Source of the DNA: a virus | Virus record (IMG/VR): IMGVR_UViG_3300008952_000003 | Span: 1 to 64,000 of that record | Length of the DNA: 64,000 nt | Direction: 5' to 3' (one strand) | Part shown: positions 3,464 to 20,834 of the stretch, one piece after another | Numbering within the stretch: position 1 is the stretch's first letter | Layout: each line of letters begins with the position of its first letter | Notes under the pieces: model-generated | Seen by the model: only the letters and a program-made list of their open reading frames with translations | The model's database searches: none | What the model was told of the DNA's origin: nothing | Translations under genes and position numbers: made by a program

Positions 3464-4120
3464 ATGGATAAAAAATCTATAAATAAATGGAAGGATTTTA
3501 AGGACTCTCCAAAATATGTTCTGTCTGAATCTGGATTAAGTCGTGTTTGGGGCCATATTACGGCTCACGATACAGCTATCATTACTGCATTTCGAAACGA
3601 TCCTCTTGATAATTCTGAATGTGCTTTCGAGTCTGATCGCGAAGAAGAGGGAAATACGGCACTGCAAACGAATAAAGATAGAAATAGTGATTTAAAGGCA
3701 GCTTTATTGTATAGCAGATACGGCGTGACAAAAGTAGACGGAGCCTATATTGAAAACTACCTCGATCCAGAAAAACAAATCGAAGTAAAAGAGGATAGCC
3801 TCCTTGTTGTTAATCTAGGTGACGATCCTGAATTCTTCTCAAATATAGAGAAACTAGGGCAAATGTTTTGTCAAGATTCTGTCTTGATAATCCCCCAAGG
3901 TGGAGAGGGTGCCTATCTTCTTGGTACAAACAATAGTGAATGGCCAGGGTTAGGAAATAGAGAGATGGTTGGCAAATTTAGAGCCGGCGAAGAGTCAGAG
4001 TTCATGACAAAAGTAAAGAAACGCCCATTTACATTCAGTGAAAATCTACAAACTTTCTCCGACCTTCCTAGAAATTCTAAATGGGTTGTGTCACTCAGGG
4101 GAAGAAAACTATTAGAATAA
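3464..4120 (+). CDS. Hypothetical protein, DUF3293-like
   Basis: 218 aa, starting with a strong AGGAGG site eight bases before ATG and a consensus promoter upstream. The sequence has a short N-terminal helix (INKWKDFKD) similar to the terminal tags seen in other large proteins here. A block follows with SRVWGHITAHD, then RNSDLKAALL and DGAYIENYL, and later LGQMFCQDSVLIIPQGG. This layout resembles the DUF3293 family of uncharacterised phage and bacterial proteins, from memory of the pattern only. No catalytic motif or membrane segment is visible. Confidence 0.6.
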   Translation: MDKKSINKWKDFKDSPKYVLSESGLSRVWGHITAHDTAIITAFRNDPLDNSECAFESDREEEGNTALQTNKDRNSDLKAALLYSRYGVTKVDGAYIENYLDPEKQIEVKEDSLLVVNLGDDPEFFSNIEKLGQMFCQDSVLIIPQGGEGAYLLGTNNSEWPGLGNREMVGKFRAGEESEFMTKVKKRPFTFSENLQTFSDLPRNSKWVVSLRGRKLLE

Positions 4121-15213: not shown

Positions 15214-17469
15214 ATGGGTGGTCTTGCTGGTCACATGAGTCATCTCTATGAGAATCCTCGACTAACTTTCAACAAGCTGAAGGAAATATTTCAGGCGGCT
15301 GCAGAGGGTGAGATCGAAGGAACAGAAAAGACAGATGGACAAAATCTCTATCTTTCGTTTTCTGTACCAGACCAAAAAATGGAATTCACAGATGGTGATG
15401 GTCCTGGGCGCGCCGCCAGAAACAAGACGAATATAAAGTCCGGAGGGCTTACTGTCAAGCAGGTCGTCGATAAGTTTGCAGATCACCCAAATCAAAAGTT
15501 GAAAAAATCTTTTTCGCAGGCACTCAGAGCTTTCGAGCGAGTAGTTCAATCTTTTCCGAGAGAAAAACAGGTTGAGATATTTGGACCAGATACAAACATA
15601 TATTATAATGCAGAAATAATTAACCCAGACACTCCGAATGTGATTTCTTACGATAAGAAGCTCGTCACCATCCACCGCGGCGGCGGTGGCTATTTCGACA
15701 AAGAGACTGGATCTCCAGAAGAAATCGAAGAAAGGGATCCGGAAACTGGAGAACTGGTAAGAAAAGAAAGAGACATCTCAAAAAATGCTGATATTCTCTC
15801 TCAAGAATTGGAAAACATAATTCAAGATATGGAAAGTCAAAGTGGATTCGAAGTTGTTATGGACGCCGTACAAAAACTGAAGTCTCTCGATAATAAAGAA
15901 GCTTTGAGAGTTGCCATGGCAGATCTAGATTCAGAAATATCTTCTGAAGGTGTTTCTGATGATCAAATGATTATTGAATATGTTATGGCAAGAATTCTAA
16001 CTATTTTGAGAGAAAAGGGAATAAATCTAGATACTGAAACAGAGAGTGTCGTTCTAAAAAGGTTATTGCTGAAAAATCTAACATATAGACAGGCATATGG
16101 ATATGATAAAATACCATCGGAGCTTCGGCCATCAAAGATATTGAAAGATTTGCCCCCAAGAGAAAAAAATAAAGTTATCGATGTCTTAAATAATTCTCGT
16201 GAGATACTAAAGCAGGCCATTCGGCCAATTGAGCACATCGTTCACAATTTTTCAGTAGCGATGCTTGAGGGGCTAGAAAGTCTTTTTATATTAGATAATA
16301 AAAAGGGCGTAGAAAAAATAAGACAAAAGGTTCTAGCAGCGAAAAAAGAAATAGAAGAGGGAGGGGTGAAAGAAAATATTAAAACCCTCTTACAACAGAT
16401 GGACAAACTCAAGAGTATTGAAAACATCTCTACTGCAGCAGAAGGATTCGTTTTTGATTATGATGGCTGGACATATAAATTTACTGGCAATTTTGCACCA
16501 ATCAATCAAATACTTGGTATTGGAAAATACGACAATCGAGGCAAACTACCAACTCTAGAGGAGTCCCTGGCTAGTGAAGTCGTGGATCTCTTGTTAAAAG
16601 AAGAGAAAGACAGTCCAGAATTTATATACATTCCAGGCGGCTTTAAGCCCCCGCATAAAGGACACTGGAATCTGGTAGAAGCATCATCGGTGGAGCATCC
16701 AGGCGTTCCTATTCGCATAATTACTGGAGAAAAGGAGCGCGGTCTCGTTGATTTCGCGACTGCCAAAAATATTTGGGATATATATATAAACAGTTCGAAC
16801 TTGGATGATGTTGAAGTAATTAATTTTACTGAATCTGGAGCGCGTAATCCTTGGAATTGGATAGGGGAAAATGCTCCGGGATCTTTTGGAATAGCTTATA
16901 GCAGCAAAGATCAAGCCTATGGAAGAATTGTTGATGCTATGAATGCTATACCGATTGAGGTTGAAGCATGCAAAGATGAGGATAAATCATGCGCATTGAG
17001 TGCTACCAACTTTCGAGATATGGGACTTAAAGATAGGAAAATATTTAAGAGCTTTATGCCGACACATATTAGCGATGAAGATGAAGACAGAATTTGGAAT
17101 ATCTTGGGAGGGTCTGAAGATGATGTCAAATTTAATATTTCAGAAGAGATCTTCTCACTCATAGAAGAGATTCTAGAAGAAAAGTATGAATCTGGCGGAT
17201 GTACTCACAAAAAGACTGGAAAATCTGGATGTAAAGTAACATTCAAAACTGGAAAAAAGAAGGGAGACACTGCATGCTACAAAGATTGTGGCACTGCAAG
17301 GTTGGCCACTAGTGGTAATATAAAAGAAGAAGAATTAGAAGAAACATCCGGCTCTGGAGCGGCTGGTGGTTTTGCTCTTCCCATGGGGCAAAAACCTGAT
17401 TACTTCAAGAGTGATCACCCCAAAGTCAAAGGGATTGAAGTTTATATCAGAGAAAGAAAAAACAACTAA
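15214..17469 (+). CDS. Fusion of ligase-type nucleotidyltransferase and NMNAT-like cytidylyltransferase
   Basis: 751 aa. The N-terminal part has the motifs of covalent nucleotidyltransferases (DNA/RNA ligases): motif I EKTDGQN with K39 as the likely adenylylated lysine, YYNAEII near residues 130-140 as motif III, E410-GFVF as motif IV and K422-FTG as motif V. The spacing between motifs III and IV is long, with helical inserts. A second domain begins near residue 470: GGFKPPHKGH (476-484) is the HxGH-type signature of NMNAT/cytidylyltransferases, with SATNFR (596-601) as the C-terminal motif. A Cys-rich patch (CTHKKTGKSGC, CYKDCG) lies near 663-695. The two halves could link NAD or nucleotide synthesis to nucleic acid joining; this is inference. 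AAGGAAG precedes ATG. Confidence 0.75.
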   Translation: MGGLAGHMSHLYENPRLTFNKLKEIFQAAAEGEIEGTEKTDGQNLYLSFSVPDQKMEFTDGDGPGRAARNKTNIKSGGLTVKQVVDKFADHPNQKLKKSFSQALRAFERVVQSFPREKQVEIFGPDTNIYYNAEIINPDTPNVISYDKKLVTIHRGGGGYFDKETGSPEEIEERDPETGELVRKERDISKNADILSQELENIIQDMESQSGFEVVMDAVQKLKSLDNKEALRVAMADLDSEISSEGVSDDQMIIEYVMARILTILREKGINLDTETESVVLKRLLLKNLTYRQAYGYDKIPSELRPSKILKDLPPREKNKVIDVLNNSREILKQAIRPIEHIVHNFSVAMLEGLESLFILDNKKGVEKIRQKVLAAKKEIEEGGVKENIKTLLQQMDKLKSIENISTAAEGFVFDYDGWTYKFTGNFAPINQILGIGKYDNRGKLPTLEESLASEVVDLLLKEEKDSPEFIYIPGGFKPPHKGHWNLVEASSVEHPGVPIRIITGEKERGLVDFATAKNIWDIYINSSNLDDVEVINFTESGARNPWNWIGENAPGSFGIAYSSKDQAYGRIVDAMNAIPIEVEACKDEDKSCALSATNFRDMGLKDRKIFKSFMPTHISDEDEDRIWNILGGSEDDVKFNISEEIFSLIEEILEEKYESGGCTHKKTGKSGCKVTFKTGKKKGDTACYKDCGTARLATSGNIKEEELEETSGSGAAGGFALPMGQKPDYFKSDHPKVKGIEVYIRERKNN

Positions 17470-17503
17470 CTAATTATAATATTAACTCTGGAGAAAAGCA
17501 TAT

Positions 17504-18316
17504 ATGTTTGATAGAAAAGATATCTTAGAAGAGCAACTTCTGAGGGAGAATATCCGAAAAGCTATTCGAATTATCAAGAATAGACGATTAAATGAAGAAA
17601 AATCAATTCGCACAATTGTTAGATCTTTGCTTAAAGAAACAAAGAACTTCAAATATCCGATTACCGCCCTGAACCAGTTGGCACACTTAGTGGAAGAGCA
17701 AATTTGGAACAATGATTCAAAGAGCAAATTGACTTTTAAGGATACTTATACTGATATCGCCTCCAACAAAAGAGATAGAGATGAGTATGTTAAATGGATT
17801 TTGCATTTTTCCAATATAGATTTCGATACTATCGATGCCGATCTTTCTCCTGAAGAGGTCGAATCAGATATAGAACAGACCACCACAGAGGAAGAGCCAG
17901 ATATTCTCACGGTTAGCCTTGATGATCTAGAGAGAAACGGTGGTGATATCACCATGGAGCCAGAATCAGAGGAAGGTTTCTTAGGAGAAGATGCTCCCGA
18001 AGTCGAAGAAGAGGAGTCCACAGGTACCAAGAGGATGGCAGAAGATGCATATGCAAAAATAGGGCCGGCATTGCGAAGATACTATCCAAAACCAGATGCC
18101 CCAGTGGAAATTTCTGTGGAAGTTGATGGCGTTATACATCCACCAGGAGAAGTAACGGAACGTTGGATATTCAGAGTATATTACGAGAAAAATGTAAAAT
18201 TAGCAGCAGATAAATACGAAGAGGAATATTTCGATAAAACCCCAGATTCGATCGAAAGCGACTTTGGTGAAGAGATCCCCTCAGAAGAAGAAGTGGAATT
18301 TGATTTAGGGCTTTAA
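17504..18316 (+). CDS. Hypothetical acidic protein with basic helical N-terminus
   Basis: 270 aa with CTGGAG before ATG 17504. Residues 1-60 are basic and helical (LLRENIRKAIRIIKNRRL, IRTIVRSLLKET), recalling the helical tags of other marine phage proteins. Residues 120-175 are a long acidic linker (EEEPD, EVEEEEST), and residues 175-240 look like a small alpha-beta domain (RMAEDAYAKIGPALRRYYP, RWIFRVYYE). Possibly a virion or assembly protein. It ends a co-directional run; the next gene has its own promoter. Confidence 0.55.
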   Translation: MFDRKDILEEQLLRENIRKAIRIIKNRRLNEEKSIRTIVRSLLKETKNFKYPITALNQLAHLVEEQIWNNDSKSKLTFKDTYTDIASNKRDRDEYVKWILHFSNIDFDTIDADLSPEEVESDIEQTTTEEEPDILTVSLDDLERNGGDITMEPESEEGFLGEDAPEVEEEESTGTKRMAEDAYAKIGPALRRYYPKPDAPVEISVEVDGVIHPPGEVTERWIFRVYYEKNVKLAADKYEEEYFDKTPDSIESDFGEEIPSEEEVEFDLGL

Positions 18317-18353
18317 TATTTGACAGCGTGACATAAAGTTACATTTATCCCCC

Positions 18354-18382
18354 TTGACAAAAAACAGATATTTGGTTACAAT
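18354..18382 (+). promoter_or_regulatory. Sigma70-type promoter
   Basis: TTGACA at 18354-18359, 17-bp spacer ending TTTGGT and TACAAT at 18377-18382. Predicted transcription would begin near 18389, exactly where a 131-base G-free repeat tract begins. It drives the gene at 18530. Confidence 0.8.
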
Positions 18383-18386
18383 GTAG

Positions 18387-18517
18387 TTACTAATACTTCA
18401 ATCACTCTAATCATACTAAACATACTAATACTTCAATCACTCTAATCACTCTAATCACTCTAATCACTCTAATCATACTAATACTTCAATCATACTAAAC
18501 ATACTAAACATACTAAT
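18387..18517 (+). repeat. G-free tandem 9-base repeat leader
   Basis: For 131 bases the + strand has no G. It is built from about 14 units of 8-9 bases: ACTTCAATC, ACTCTAATC, ATACTAAAC and ATACTAAT, with ACTCTAATC four times in a row in the middle. No open frame with a start codon crosses it, and the units have no dyad symmetry, so it is neither coding nor CRISPR. It lies between a consensus promoter and ATG 18530, so it would form an unstructured 5' leader of about 140 bases. Confidence 0.85.
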
Positions 18518-18529
18518 GTATAAGAATCG

Positions 18530-18910
18530 ATGATATCTTGGAAACGAAAAAAGAACTATAATGGAAAGAATAAAGATTATAGTATCATTAATAAGCTAAG
18601 AAAAGAGCGCAAATCTAATGAAGAATTTGAAATTATGCTTAGCAATATTACGCTGGAGGAGACAATAGCGCTCCGATTAGAATTGGCTAGCCGATCGATT
18701 TCCAATCGATTATATGGTTTTCCTTTATGGTATTCCATAAGTGATATAATTAAAGACGCCGTTGTTAAATATGCATTTTCGGCGACGAGAACAAAACTTG
18801 AGGCCATGCGATTTTTGGGCCTTAAAGAAAACTCTCATCACGAATTGAATAAAAAATATAATGTTGAAGATTATTTTTCCAATAAACAAAATTTAGATAT
18901 TGACGAATAG
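18530..18910 (+). CDS. Hypothetical protein behind the repeat leader
   Basis: 126 aa. The N-terminus is basic (SWKRKKNYNGKNKDY), the middle is helical (LEETIALRLELASRS), followed by LWYSISDIIKDAVVKYAF and EAMRFLGLKEN. The last part might include a helix-turn-helix-like segment but this is weak. ATG 18530 has only a poor ribosome site (AAGAA). It may depend on the unusual leader for translation. No family recognised. Confidence 0.55.
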   Translation: MISWKRKKNYNGKNKDYSIINKLRKERKSNEEFEIMLSNITLEETIALRLELASRSISNRLYGFPLWYSISDIIKDAVVKYAFSATRTKLEAMRFLGLKENSHHELNKKYNVEDYFSNKQNLDIDE

Positions 18911-18928
18911 ACGAAACGGTGTTATACT
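18900..18928 (+). promoter_or_regulatory. Sigma70-type promoter
   Basis: TTGACG at 18900-18905, 17-bp spacer and TATACT at 18923-18928, with a TG-like extension (GGTGT) before the -10. It overlaps the 3' end of the preceding gene and reads into a 230-base stretch with no long gene. It shares GGTGTTATA with the promoter at 39286. Confidence 0.65.
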
Positions 18929-19033
18929 TACTATAGAAATAGGGTGTTATTTATGATATAGGGAGAAGAACGAATATAAGGTCAAGGTTCAATGTCTCTA
19001 ACGAACCTGAAGATGAGGGGAGGATACATATAT

Positions 19034-19165
19034 ATGATTTCGTTATTACTCACAAAACTTCGAATTACAGGGAGGCTAGGAAGCTGGACATCTGAGTTAA
19101 CCAGCATTTCTCCCTATATAATAAATAACATACACCTCAAAAATAGAGAGCATCAAAACATATGA
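19034..19165 (+). CDS. Possible 43-aa small protein in an otherwise empty 250-base gap
   Basis: The stretch 18911-19161 holds no long gene. A GGGGAGGA ribosome-like site at 19017-19024 precedes ATG 19034, and the frame (which also extends back to ATG 18992) ends at TGA 19163-19165, overlapping ATG 19162 of the next gene by four bases. The product would be hydrophobic at its start (ISLLLTKLRI) and polar after. The coupled stop favours a real gene; the odd composition leaves a leader RNA or small RNA as an alternative. Confidence 0.35.
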   Translation: MISLLLTKLRITGRLGSWTSELTSISPYIINNIHLKNREHQNI

Positions 19166-19404
19166 CCGTAGAAGAAGTAATAGATTTAGCATATTCGGAA
19201 TATTCTAGCATGCTTAAGTCGGGAGATTCTCTCGAAATTATTCGTGGAACCGACGATGGCGGTAAATCACTGGACTTCATTGTTGTTGGTGATGAGAATG
19301 CCACTCTCCTGAGAAATGCGCTCCCAAACACATATAATGGATATCGAACTGTTGTAGTATATAGCTACGAGCCAGAATACGAACTAAACGACGAAGAGTT
19401 CTAA
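19162..19404 (+). CDS. Hypothetical acidic protein
   Basis: 80 aa with helix-then-strand pattern: TVEEVIDLAYSEYSSML, SLEIIRGTD, SLDFIVVGDENATLL, YRTVVVYSYEPE. No family recognised. The next gene starts one base after its stop, so the two are probably translated together. Confidence 0.5.
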   Translation: MTVEEVIDLAYSEYSSMLKSGDSLEIIRGTDDGGKSLDFIVVGDENATLLRNALPNTYNGYRTVVVYSYEPEYELNDEEF

Positions 19405-19405
19405 T

Positions 19406-20068
19406 GTGAAAAGGCTCGTAATCTCAGATACTCATATCGGATCTAGATTTTGTAGAAAAAAAGAGCTTTTGGAGCTTATCCGCACAGCCGAGTATGATCA
19501 ATTGATCTTAAATGGTGATATTATAGAGTTCTTGAAAGTTCCCACTTTCACTCCGCTGGCCCTGGATATAATAAAGTCTATAGATTATACTAAGGATATA
19601 ATTTATGTTGTTGGCAATCACGATGTTGCATTAGCTAATTTTGTCGGTCAGGATCTCCATGGAGTAAGATTTGTCAATGAATACTGCTTCGAGGAATCCG
19701 GAAGGATATTCAGGGTAGAACATGGCGACAAATATGAGACTGGCCTAGTTCACAGAAAAAATATTATGAGATTCATTTCCCTCTTTCAGGACTTTTTGGA
19801 GAGGGCGTTTAATATAGATTTAGCTTCTTGGTTGACAAATTTAAAAATCAAAAAAAGAAAATTAAAAAAACTTTGGGATATAATGGACATCAATGATGAC
19901 GTGGACGTTCTGGTCATTGGCCACTTACATATACCAGAAGTTGTTATTTGGATCGATGAAGACGAGAATATTAAAACATACGTCAACAGTGGCGATTGGG
20001 TCCAGCACGCAACTTATGTTGAAATCAATGATGGTGTTGTCCGATTAAGAAATTTTTTAAAAAAATAG
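19406..20068 (+). CDS. Calcineurin-like metallophosphoesterase (LpxH/YfcE-type)
   Basis: 220 aa from GTG 19406. All motifs of the family are present in order: SDTHIGS (I), NGDIIEF (II), GNHDVA (III), EHGDKYETG (IV) and GHLHIPE (V), ending in VNSGDWVQH. These bind two metal ions and hydrolyse phosphoesters or pyrophosphates. The length and HGDKYE pattern resemble UDP-2,3-diacylglucosamine hydrolase-like proteins, but lipid A specificity is not established. A fatty-acid-hydroxylase-like gene follows, which may hint at envelope lipid changes. Confidence 0.8.
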   Translation: MKRLVISDTHIGSRFCRKKELLELIRTAEYDQLILNGDIIEFLKVPTFTPLALDIIKSIDYTKDIIYVVGNHDVALANFVGQDLHGVRFVNEYCFEESGRIFRVEHGDKYETGLVHRKNIMRFISLFQDFLERAFNIDLASWLTNLKIKKRKLKKLWDIMDINDDVDVLVIGHLHIPEVVIWIDEDENIKTYVNSGDWVQHATYVEINDGVVRLRNFLKK

Positions 20069-20111
20069 AAATTAAAAATAATTAATAATAATTATTTTCG
20101 GAGTCTTTGAT

Positions 20112-20546
20112 ATGAGCGCTGTTTTTCTTGTCGTGGCTGGATTTTTTGCCACATCTTTTCTCTTTTATTTGAACCACAGGTTTGTTGGTCACGGCCCACT
20201 TGGAAGGCTTCCGCTATTAAAATATATAAGAAAGATGCATTTGATTCACCACAAGAACGACTATAACGAGAAAAGAAACGATCACCTGTTTTTGCCATTC
20301 TGGGCAAAGTTGCTATTCCTTTCAGTGTTCGGCATAATCTCTTTAATGTCAATTTCTTTTGCTGTGGGGTACATTTCTTATGTGCTTTATTATGAATGGA
20401 TGCACCACAAAATACACAATCACGATAAAAGCTCAAGGTGTTATAAGCATCATTATGTCCATCACAGAAAATCTATAAAACACAATTTCTCAGGTACGAT
20501 GCCCTTTATCGATAAGCTCTTTGGTACCGATCTAAAAAAAGCTTGA
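20112..20546 (+). CDS. Fatty acid hydroxylase/sterol desaturase-superfamily membrane protein
   Basis: 144 aa with a hydrophobic first segment (VFLVVAGFFATSFLFY) and a second at about residues 72-98. The superfamily's histidine clusters are visible: HRFVGH, HLIHH, HH-x-IHNH and HHYVHH. These bind the di-iron centre of membrane hydroxylases that act on acyl chains, carotenoids or sterols. Compared with bacterial members it is short, so it may be a compact form. CGGAG precedes ATG. Phage copies are unusual; the likely target is a host membrane lipid, by inference. Confidence 0.75.
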   Translation: MSAVFLVVAGFFATSFLFYLNHRFVGHGPLGRLPLLKYIRKMHLIHHKNDYNEKRNDHLFLPFWAKLLFLSVFGIISLMSISFAVGYISYVLYYEWMHHKIHNHDKSSRCYKHHYVHHRKSIKHNFSGTMPFIDKLFGTDLKKA

Positions 20547-20571
20547 CAAAGAAAGCCATAGGTGATATATT
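20543..20571 (+). promoter_or_regulatory. Sigma70-type promoter of the tRNA cluster
   Basis: TTGACA at 20543-20548, 17-bp spacer and TATATT at 20566-20571. It starts inside the last codons of the hydroxylase gene and lies 25 bases before tRNA-Met, so it should drive the three tRNAs and possibly the genes after them. Confidence 0.78.
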
Positions 20572-20596
20572 ATTAGTATGGAAAAGAAAATTAATA

Positions 20597-20673
20597 GGAC
20601 CTATAGCTCAGTTGGTCAGAGCACCCGGCTCATAACCGGAATGTCCCAGGTTCAAGTCCTGGTGGGTCCACCA
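20597..20673 (+). tRNA. tRNA-Met (CAU), elongator type
   Basis: Acceptor GGACCTA pairs with TGGGTCC, D-arm TAGCTCAGTTGGTCAGAGCA, anticodon stem CCCGG/CCGGA around CTCATAA (CAT), T-arm CCAGG TTCAAGT CCTGG, discriminator A, encoded CCA. The paired G1-C72 argues against an initiator tRNA. A tRNA-Ile2 with modified CAU anticodon is the alternative. Confidence 0.9.
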
Positions 20674-20679
20674 TTCAAT

Positions 20680-20752
20680 TGGGATGTAGTACAATTGGCA
20701 GTACGTCAGACTGTTAATCTGAAAGTTGTTGGTTCGAGTCCAACCGTCCCAG
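20680..20752 (+). tRNA. tRNA-Asn (GUU)
   Basis: Acceptor TGGGATG pairs with CGTCCCA, anticodon stem TCAGA/TCTGA around CTGTTAA (GTT), T-arm GTTGG TTCGAGT CCAAC, discriminator G. Unlike its neighbours it does not encode CCA (followed by TTTTT), so CCA must be added by a nucleotidyltransferase. Confidence 0.9.
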
Positions 20753-20757
20753 TTTTT

Positions 20758-20834
20758 GCGCCCTTAGCTCAACTGGATAGAGCAACAGCCTTCTAAGCTG
20801 TAGGTTTCAGGTTCGAGTCCTGAAGGGCGTGCCA
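20758..20834 (+). tRNA. tRNA-Arg (UCU)
   Basis: Acceptor GCGCCCT pairs with AGGGCGT (G-T at the end), D-arm TAGCTCAACTGGATAGAGCA, anticodon stem ACAGC/GCTGT around CTTCTAA (TCT, codon AGA), T-arm TCAGG TTCGAGT CCTGA, discriminator G, encoded CCA. AGA is frequent in the genes of this window. Confidence 0.93.

What the first reader, a model, noticed from the sequence alone, without database searches (positions are those of the whole stretch)
18354..18529. Promoter followed by a 131-base G-free repeat leader
A strong promoter is predicted to start transcription within two or three bases of a tract with no G on the transcribed-sense strand, built of about 14 units of 8-9 bases. The downstream gene has a poor ribosome site. 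An unstructured multi-site RNA leader could recruit an RNA-binding protein or ribosomal protein S1, or titrate a factor. I know of no named element like it.
Basis: partly seen in the sequence, partly recalled or inferred. Interest (0 to 1): 0.8.

Follow-up and report, generated by a model that had tools for sequence, protein, structure and literature searches.

The report
Phage G-free repeat RNA leader
A marine phage and its relatives carry, right after a strong promoter, about 10-15 copies of a nine-letter G-free motif as the untranslated start of the mRNA for a small DNA-binding-like protein; the motif has survived long divergence, so it probably controls how that protein is made without the usual ribosome-binding signal.

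Summary
A sigma-70-type promoter (TTGACA-17-TACAAT, 18354-18382) is followed by a 131-nt G-free tract (18387-18517); the longest run in 100 simulated 64-kb sequences was 58 nt. It is built of 9-nt units and ends 12 nt before a gene (126 aa) without Shine-Dalgarno. It occurs once in the 193-kb record. Seven related viral contigs keep the layout (promoter cut off in one) although flanking proteins have fallen to 36-47% identity in several. Unbiased motif fitting on eight leaders gives one unit, CA(C/T)(A/T)CTAA(A/T), 9-11 copies each; positions 1, 2, 5-8 are nearly fixed, 3, 4, 9 vary. More distant orthologues lack it. Best reading: an RNA-level, single-stranded multi-site leader for SD-independent translation of a weakly Fis-like protein, through S1/30S standby or a sequence-specific RNA-binding protein. 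A DNA-level repeat operator is not excluded. A dedicated Rho site, boxA, Hfq and R-loop readings fit poorly. Scans found G-free 9-nt repeat leaders in unrelated phages and a few bacteria, but a reversed-pattern control found some too, so unit specificity rests on the eight relatives. Closest kind: unstructured S1/standby enhancer leaders; the conserved long array is a new variant. No expression data exist.

The parts
18337..18353 (+). Conserved promoter-upstream box, AGTTACATTTATCCCCC, directly before -35 (consensus AAARTTACATYTTTTYC)
   Evidence: Present in 6 of 7 homologous promoters read (weak in L007); one copy in the window. Function unknown (UP element or activator site: inference).
18354..18382 (+). 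Sigma-70-type promoter TTGACA-17-TACAAT; predicted start about 18389
   Evidence: 11/12. TTGACA conserved in all homologues whose upstream DNA is present.
18387..18517 (+). 131-nt G-free tract = start of the predicted mRNA
18403..18517 (+). Array of 11 canonical 9-nt units CAYWCTAAW (18403, 18412, 18421, 18438, 18447, 18456, 18465, 18474, 18491, 18500, 18509) with two degenerate 8-nt fillers; further degenerate units at 18389-18402
18518..18529 (+). Post-array segment GTATAAGAATCG; G returns at once, no SD
18530..18910 (+). 126-aa gene controlled by the leader; all-helical, weakly Fis/helix-turn-helix-like
   Evidence: No Pfam/PHROG hit; Fis structures dominate the Foldseek list but at E >= 1.4; profile match to a helix-turn-helix-like designed repeat at profile positions 85-117.

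Best explanation
The tract is the untranslated 5' end of the mRNA for the 126-aa Fis-like protein. It is a long, single-stranded, multi-copy binding platform: 10-15 copies of YW-CUAAW-CA that cannot fold on themselves. It lets ribosomes start on a gene that has no Shine-Dalgarno sequence, most likely because 30S subunits are captured through protein S1 (ribosome standby) or through another RNA-binding protein that recognises the unit, and then reach the AUG 12 nt downstream. Shown: promoter consensus, G-freedom, lack of predicted structure, lack of SD, conservation of the unit, copy number and position in eight relatives. Inferred: that it is transcribed, that it acts as RNA, that it raises rather than represses translation, and who binds it.
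For: In the six homologues with a complete promoter hit, 128-150 nt separate the -10 from the ATG and the G-poor array fills nearly all of it; G returns immediately after the array. Predicted unpaired fraction of the array 0.71-0.90 against 0.45-0.48 on average for random segments of the same loci; RNase E-type RNWUU sites below shuffled expectation in 7 of 8. EM without a preset unit recovers CAYWCTAAW, 83 sites, 9-11 per leader, spacing 9 or 15-18; fixed positions 1, 2, 5-8 (pooled heterozygosity 0.06-0.25) and freely varying 3, 4, 9 (0.51-0.54) across lineages, while neighbouring proteins have fallen to 36-47% identity in L004-L006: selection on the unit, not fresh slippage. One copy of the array in the 193-kb record. 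Unrelated phages and bacteria also place G-free 9-nt repeats just upstream of a start codon (L010, L022, L026, L029, L032, L034; L189, L181, L194). S1 binding to AU-rich single-stranded leaders of genes with no or weak SD, and standby sites, are established (PMC4611024, PMC5397173, PMC7708055).
Against: No transcript, 5' end, ribosome or binding data. Generic S1 or standby recruitment would not need a fixed CTAA core, so a more specific reader may be involved. The translation-start region itself is not predicted to be unusually open (0.38-0.59). The reversed-pattern control also found G-free repeats next to start codons, so the outside cases support 'G-free repeat leader', not this unit. The eight homologues descend from one event and are not independent for position.
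Confidence: 0.45

Rival explanations
1. Autogenous or trans translational operator (or sponge): a sequence-specific RNA-binding protein of phage or host binds the units cooperatively and represses or times translation, as gp32 does on the A+U-rich gene 32 leader of T4; the multi-copy RNA might also titrate that protein.
For: Strongly position-specific conservation of the unit and conserved copy number look like specific multi-site recognition. T4 gene 32 precedent: cooperative binding along an unstructured A+U-rich leader with UUAA(A) repeats (PMC3014915).
Against: No reader is known; no Pfam SSB, RegA or S1-domain protein was found in the phage record (the RegA search had no positive control). 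The gene's own product looks like a DNA-binding rather than a single-strand-binding protein. The array stops 12 nt before the AUG instead of overlapping it.
Confidence: 0.2
2. DNA-level repeat array: an operator or iteron-like site bound as duplex DNA, most simply by the Fis-like product of the gene itself, regulating its own promoter (or a partition- or origin-like site).
For: The product is weakly Fis-like; direct-repeat arrays of 9-11 bp beside the promoter of a small DNA-binding protein are known for partition operons (from memory).
Against: All units lie downstream of the predicted start and upstream of the ATG, none within or above the promoter. 9-bp spacing with 15-18-bp jumps keeps no helical phase. 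The unit has no dyad and contains no G, unlike Fis sites (from memory). No array elsewhere in the record; no excess of single units elsewhere in the window (6 outside the array, about 6 expected). A T4-type R-loop origin is unlikely because the RNA has no G (general knowledge).
Confidence: 0.2
3. Neutral minisatellite produced by slippage in an untranslated spacer.
For: Similar 9-nt G-free repeats occur in coding, intergenic and leader DNA of unrelated genomes.
Against: Same consensus, same variable positions and similar copy number in eight lineages with strongly diverged neighbours; position always exactly between promoter and ATG.
Confidence: 0.1
4. Rho utilisation site: the C-containing, G-free leader loads Rho and terminates transcription when translation is slow.
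For: rut sites are C-rich, G-poor unstructured RNA, C>G bubbles (PMC9160355); the tract is an extreme C>G bubble.
Against: YC dinucleotides, the Rho contact, are at or below composition-shuffled expectation in all eight leaders (6 against 13.7 in L003); C is only 23-29%; half of the units have A before C5.
Confidence: 0.05

Closest known systems
S1-dependent ribosome standby sites and AU-rich translational enhancers in bacterial leaders
   Same: Long single-stranded, AU-rich 5' leader upstream of a start codon with no or weak SD (PMC4611024, PMC5397173, PMC7708055)
   Different: Known examples, as far as I know, are not tandem arrays of a conserved 9-nt unit, and standby as in tisB serves a sequestered RBS with a 5' structure; here there is no predicted structure and no SD
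Omega leader of tobacco mosaic virus, active in E. coli
   Same: From memory: G-free leader with short direct repeats that can replace an SD in E. coli (title of Gallie & Kado 1989, listed in PMC13205671)
   Different: Plant RNA virus leader, shorter, other repeats; no common origin
T4 gene 32 translational operator
   Same: Phage mRNA leader with an unstructured A+U-rich tract and short repeats bound cooperatively (PMC3014915)
   Different: Has a nucleating pseudoknot and controls the SSB gene; here neither is seen for this leader
Rho rut sites
   Same: G-poor, unstructured, C-containing RNA
   Different: YC dinucleotides not enriched; modest C content
boxA of rRNA and lambda-type antitermination leaders
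   Same: CTCT(T)AA-like core in a few units of L004 and L006
   Different: CTCTT absent from 6 of 8 leaders; no boxB or boxC seen

Membership tests
S1/standby-type enhancer leader | Single-stranded segment upstream of the start codon | tested here: met
   Predicted unpaired 0.71-0.90 against about 0.47 for random segments; prediction only
S1/standby-type enhancer leader | Gene with no or weak SD, or a sequestered RBS | tested here: met
   No SD motif at 18530; relatives likewise except an AGGA in L003
S1/standby-type enhancer leader | Leader binds S1/30S and raises translation | not testable with these tools
   Needs binding, toeprint and reporter assays
T4 gene 32-type autogenous operator | Gene product is a cooperative single-strand-binding protein | tested here: inconclusive
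   126 aa, helical, Fis-like rather than OB-like, but low-confidence model
T4 gene 32-type autogenous operator | Nucleating 5' pseudoknot | tested here: not met
   Leader folds to only -0.1 to -2.2 kcal/mol
Rho rut site | C>G bubble of at least about 78 nt | tested here: met
   131 nt without G
Rho rut site | Enriched, regularly spaced YC dinucleotides | tested here: not met
   YC at or below shuffled expectation in 8 of 8
boxA antitermination element | Conserved CTCTT(T)A core | tested here: not met
   Present once each in L004 and L006 only
Hfq distal-face site | Runs of A-R-N triplets | tested here: not met
   None in seven of eight leaders
DNA iteron or operator array of a Fis-like protein | Protein bound to the duplex repeats | not testable with these tools
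   Needs EMSA or footprinting
Any Rfam family | Covariance-model match | tested here: not met
   No Rfam match in 18300-18600

The most novel reading that the evidence does not exclude
The leader is a sequence-specific, 10-15-site single-stranded RNA operator (CUAAWCA-YW repeats) read by an undescribed phage or host RNA-binding protein, i.e. a new class of multi-site translational control element that may also act as a sponge.
Probability: 0.25. Interest if true: 0.8.

Novelty: new variant of a known kind. Interest (0 to 1): 0.55.

Why it matters
SD-independent initiation in bacteria is still poorly defined at sequence level. A natural leader with one short unit repeated 10-15 times and conserved over long divergence is a ready-made test object: the unit, its number and spacing can be varied one at a time in a reporter, and the RNA can be used as bait for its reader. 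It would also suggest why G-free repeat leaders recur in unrelated phages.

Tried and rejected
BLASTN of 16500-20100 and tblastn of the 126-aa protein against annotated phages: no match, so no annotated or cultured relative could be used. Search with the 751-aa neighbour: no relative. Rfam: no match to the leader. boxA, Hfq ARN and MazF ACA readings: not conserved. Rho rut: YC not enriched. Phage antisense partner RNA: no complementary copy with fewer than 2 mismatches over 17 nt elsewhere in the record. Pairing to the 16S 790 loop (CUAAUC) was considered by eye and dropped because W9 is A in over a third of the units. A scan for consensus promoter plus 70 G-free bases, not biased towards this unit, found one further real family (L055 and near-identical contigs) among 8 hits; the C-free control gave 45 hits, so long G-free transcript starts are not common in phages. 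The reversed-pattern control weakened the claim that the exact unit recurs outside this clade. The supposed Fis relation is not significant (E >= 1.4; the HTH_8 model gave no match).

Full report
OBSERVATION. The window is the first 64 kb of a 193,157-base virus record. At 18354-18382 there is TTGACA-17-TACAAT. From 18387 to 18517 the + strand has no G: 131 nt, against 44 nt for the next longest run, and a maximum of 58 nt in 100 simulated 64-kb sequences of the same dinucleotide make-up. Tandem Repeats Finder reports periods of 9, 35 and 53. The tract ends 12 nt before the ATG of a 126-aa ORF (18530-18910). The ATG has no SD-like motif, whereas 41 of 66 genes of the window have one at some plausible start. 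The array is the only one in the 193-kb record.

RELATIVES. The 126-aa protein finds seven viral contigs at 55-83% identity; a pattern scan adds L009. L002, L003, L004, L005, L006, L007 and L009 all carry the G-poor repeat leader directly before the same gene, and all except L003, whose contig starts inside the element, show TTGACA at the right place. Gene order 751 aa - 270 aa - leader - 126 aa - 80 aa - phosphoesterase is kept in the clade where the contigs reach; in L004-L006 the first two proteins are only 36-47% identical to the window's. More distant orthologues (L008, L113, L115-L125; about 48-57%) lack the array, and in those tested the downstream 80-aa and phosphoesterase genes were not found. 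In several of them (L120, L121, L124, L125) a TATAAT lies about 6 nt before the ATG, which suggests leaderless mRNA (inference). So the leader was most simply gained once, in the window's clade.

UNIT. EM fitting without a preset motif on eight leaders gave CA(C/T)(A/T)CTAA(A/T), 83 sites, 9-11 per leader, mostly 9 nt apart with jumps of 15-18. CTAA occurs 76 times against 14 expected from composition. With looser matching there are 11-15 units per leader; positions 1, 2, 5, 6, 7, 8 have pooled heterozygosity 0.06-0.25 and positions 3, 4, 9 have 0.51-0.54; positions 3 and 4 vary in every lineage and position 9 in nearly all. Fresh slippage would give units that are identical within and different between lineages; this is the opposite, so the unit is probably under selection. 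G is absent or single within each array but makes up about a sixth of the bases between array and ATG, so G-freedom belongs to the array rather than to the whole leader. In the window, single units outside the array are no more frequent than chance (6 against about 6).

RNA OR DNA. For RNA: the array starts at the predicted transcript start and stops before the ATG in all homologues, with no unit in or above the promoter; it is predicted to be single-stranded (0.71-0.90 unpaired against about 0.47; leader energies -0.1 to -2.2 kcal/mol); spacing is not helical. For DNA: the product resembles Fis weakly (Fis entries dominate the Foldseek list, best E 1.4; a helix-turn-helix-like profile match; model pLDDT 73). 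I judge RNA more likely, not proved.

OUTSIDE THE CLADE. A scan for the period-9 CTAA pattern returned 39 viral stretches. Apart from the clade, six unrelated families have the repeats just upstream of an ORF on the same strand (L010, L022, L026/L031/L044, L029/L036/L046, L032/L047, L034), some after a promoter-like sequence and most before an SD; other hits are mostly coding. A bacterial scan gave 17 stretches, among them leaders before an AbrB-like gene with TTGACA-17-TATACT (L189), before a gene I read by eye as rsmD (L181) and one read as transaldolase (L194); L187 has the array in the opposite sense, so orientation is not absolute. The reversed pattern, with the same composition and period, returned 55 stretches, some also directly before start codons (L126, L142, L173, L174, L130). 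So G-free 9-nt repeats recur in leaders, but specificity for CTAA is supported only inside the clade.

MECHANISM. Best reading: a single-stranded multi-site platform for SD-independent initiation, through S1/30S standby or a more specific RNA-binding protein (0.45 for the RNA translational platform; 0.20 for a repressor-type operator or sponge; 0.20 DNA array; 0.10 neutral; 0.05 Rho). S1's preference for AU-rich single-stranded leaders and standby are documented (PMC4611024, PMC5397173, PMC7708055); cooperative operator binding along an unstructured repeat-bearing phage leader is documented for T4 gp32 (PMC3014915). Rho sites are C-rich, G-poor RNA (PMC9160355), but YC dinucleotides are at or below chance in all eight leaders.

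VERDICT. Real, conserved, and probably functional; what it works like is known, but a long array of one conserved 9-nt unit in this role was not found in the papers searched. New variant of a known kind.

Noticed in passing
window 18900-19118: A second conserved promoter (TTGACG-17-TATACT inside the 3' end of the 126-aa gene) is followed by a structured RNA, 18983-19118, in front of the 80-aa gene: two hairpins plus a loop pseudoknot (CUCU with GGAG/GAGAG). All cells of the 14 tested pairs form standard pairs in seven sequences, 5 pairs with changes on both sides; slid controls give 36-57%. No Rfam match. A covariance model finds it in the window and L002-L007 and in none of the loci of distant orthologues (L008, L113, L115-L118, L120-L125; L009 is cut off before it), so it co-occurs with the repeat leader. 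Probably a new structured leader RNA.
   Followed up: partly
window 18337-18353 and homologues: Conserved AAARTTACATYTTTTYC box directly upstream of the -35 of the leader promoter in 6 of 7 homologues; possible UP element or phage activator site.
   Followed up: partly
L120, L121, L124, L125 around 3950-3980: Distant orthologues have TATAAT about 6 nt before the ATG of the same gene, suggesting leaderless transcripts.
   Followed up: no
L055:3547 and near-identical contigs L056, L057, L058, L060, L062: Unrelated viral family with TTGACA-TATAAT followed by a G-free repeat (ACACTTAAACTAAAAACTTAAACAA type) of about 95 nt and no clear ORF near; possible non-coding RNA.
   Followed up: partly
L189:503-529, L181:3956-3982, L194:7761-7787: Bacterial MAG contigs with 9-nt G-free repeats as leaders before an AbrB-like gene and genes read by eye as rsmD and transaldolase.
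   Followed up: partly
L054, L025: Long CAATCTAAT arrays about 190-230 nt upstream of a large-terminase-like gene; the two loci differ in an intein-like insertion in that gene (read by eye).
   Followed up: no
window 20543-20834: Strong promoter directly before a three-tRNA cluster (Met, Asn, Arg).
   Followed up: no
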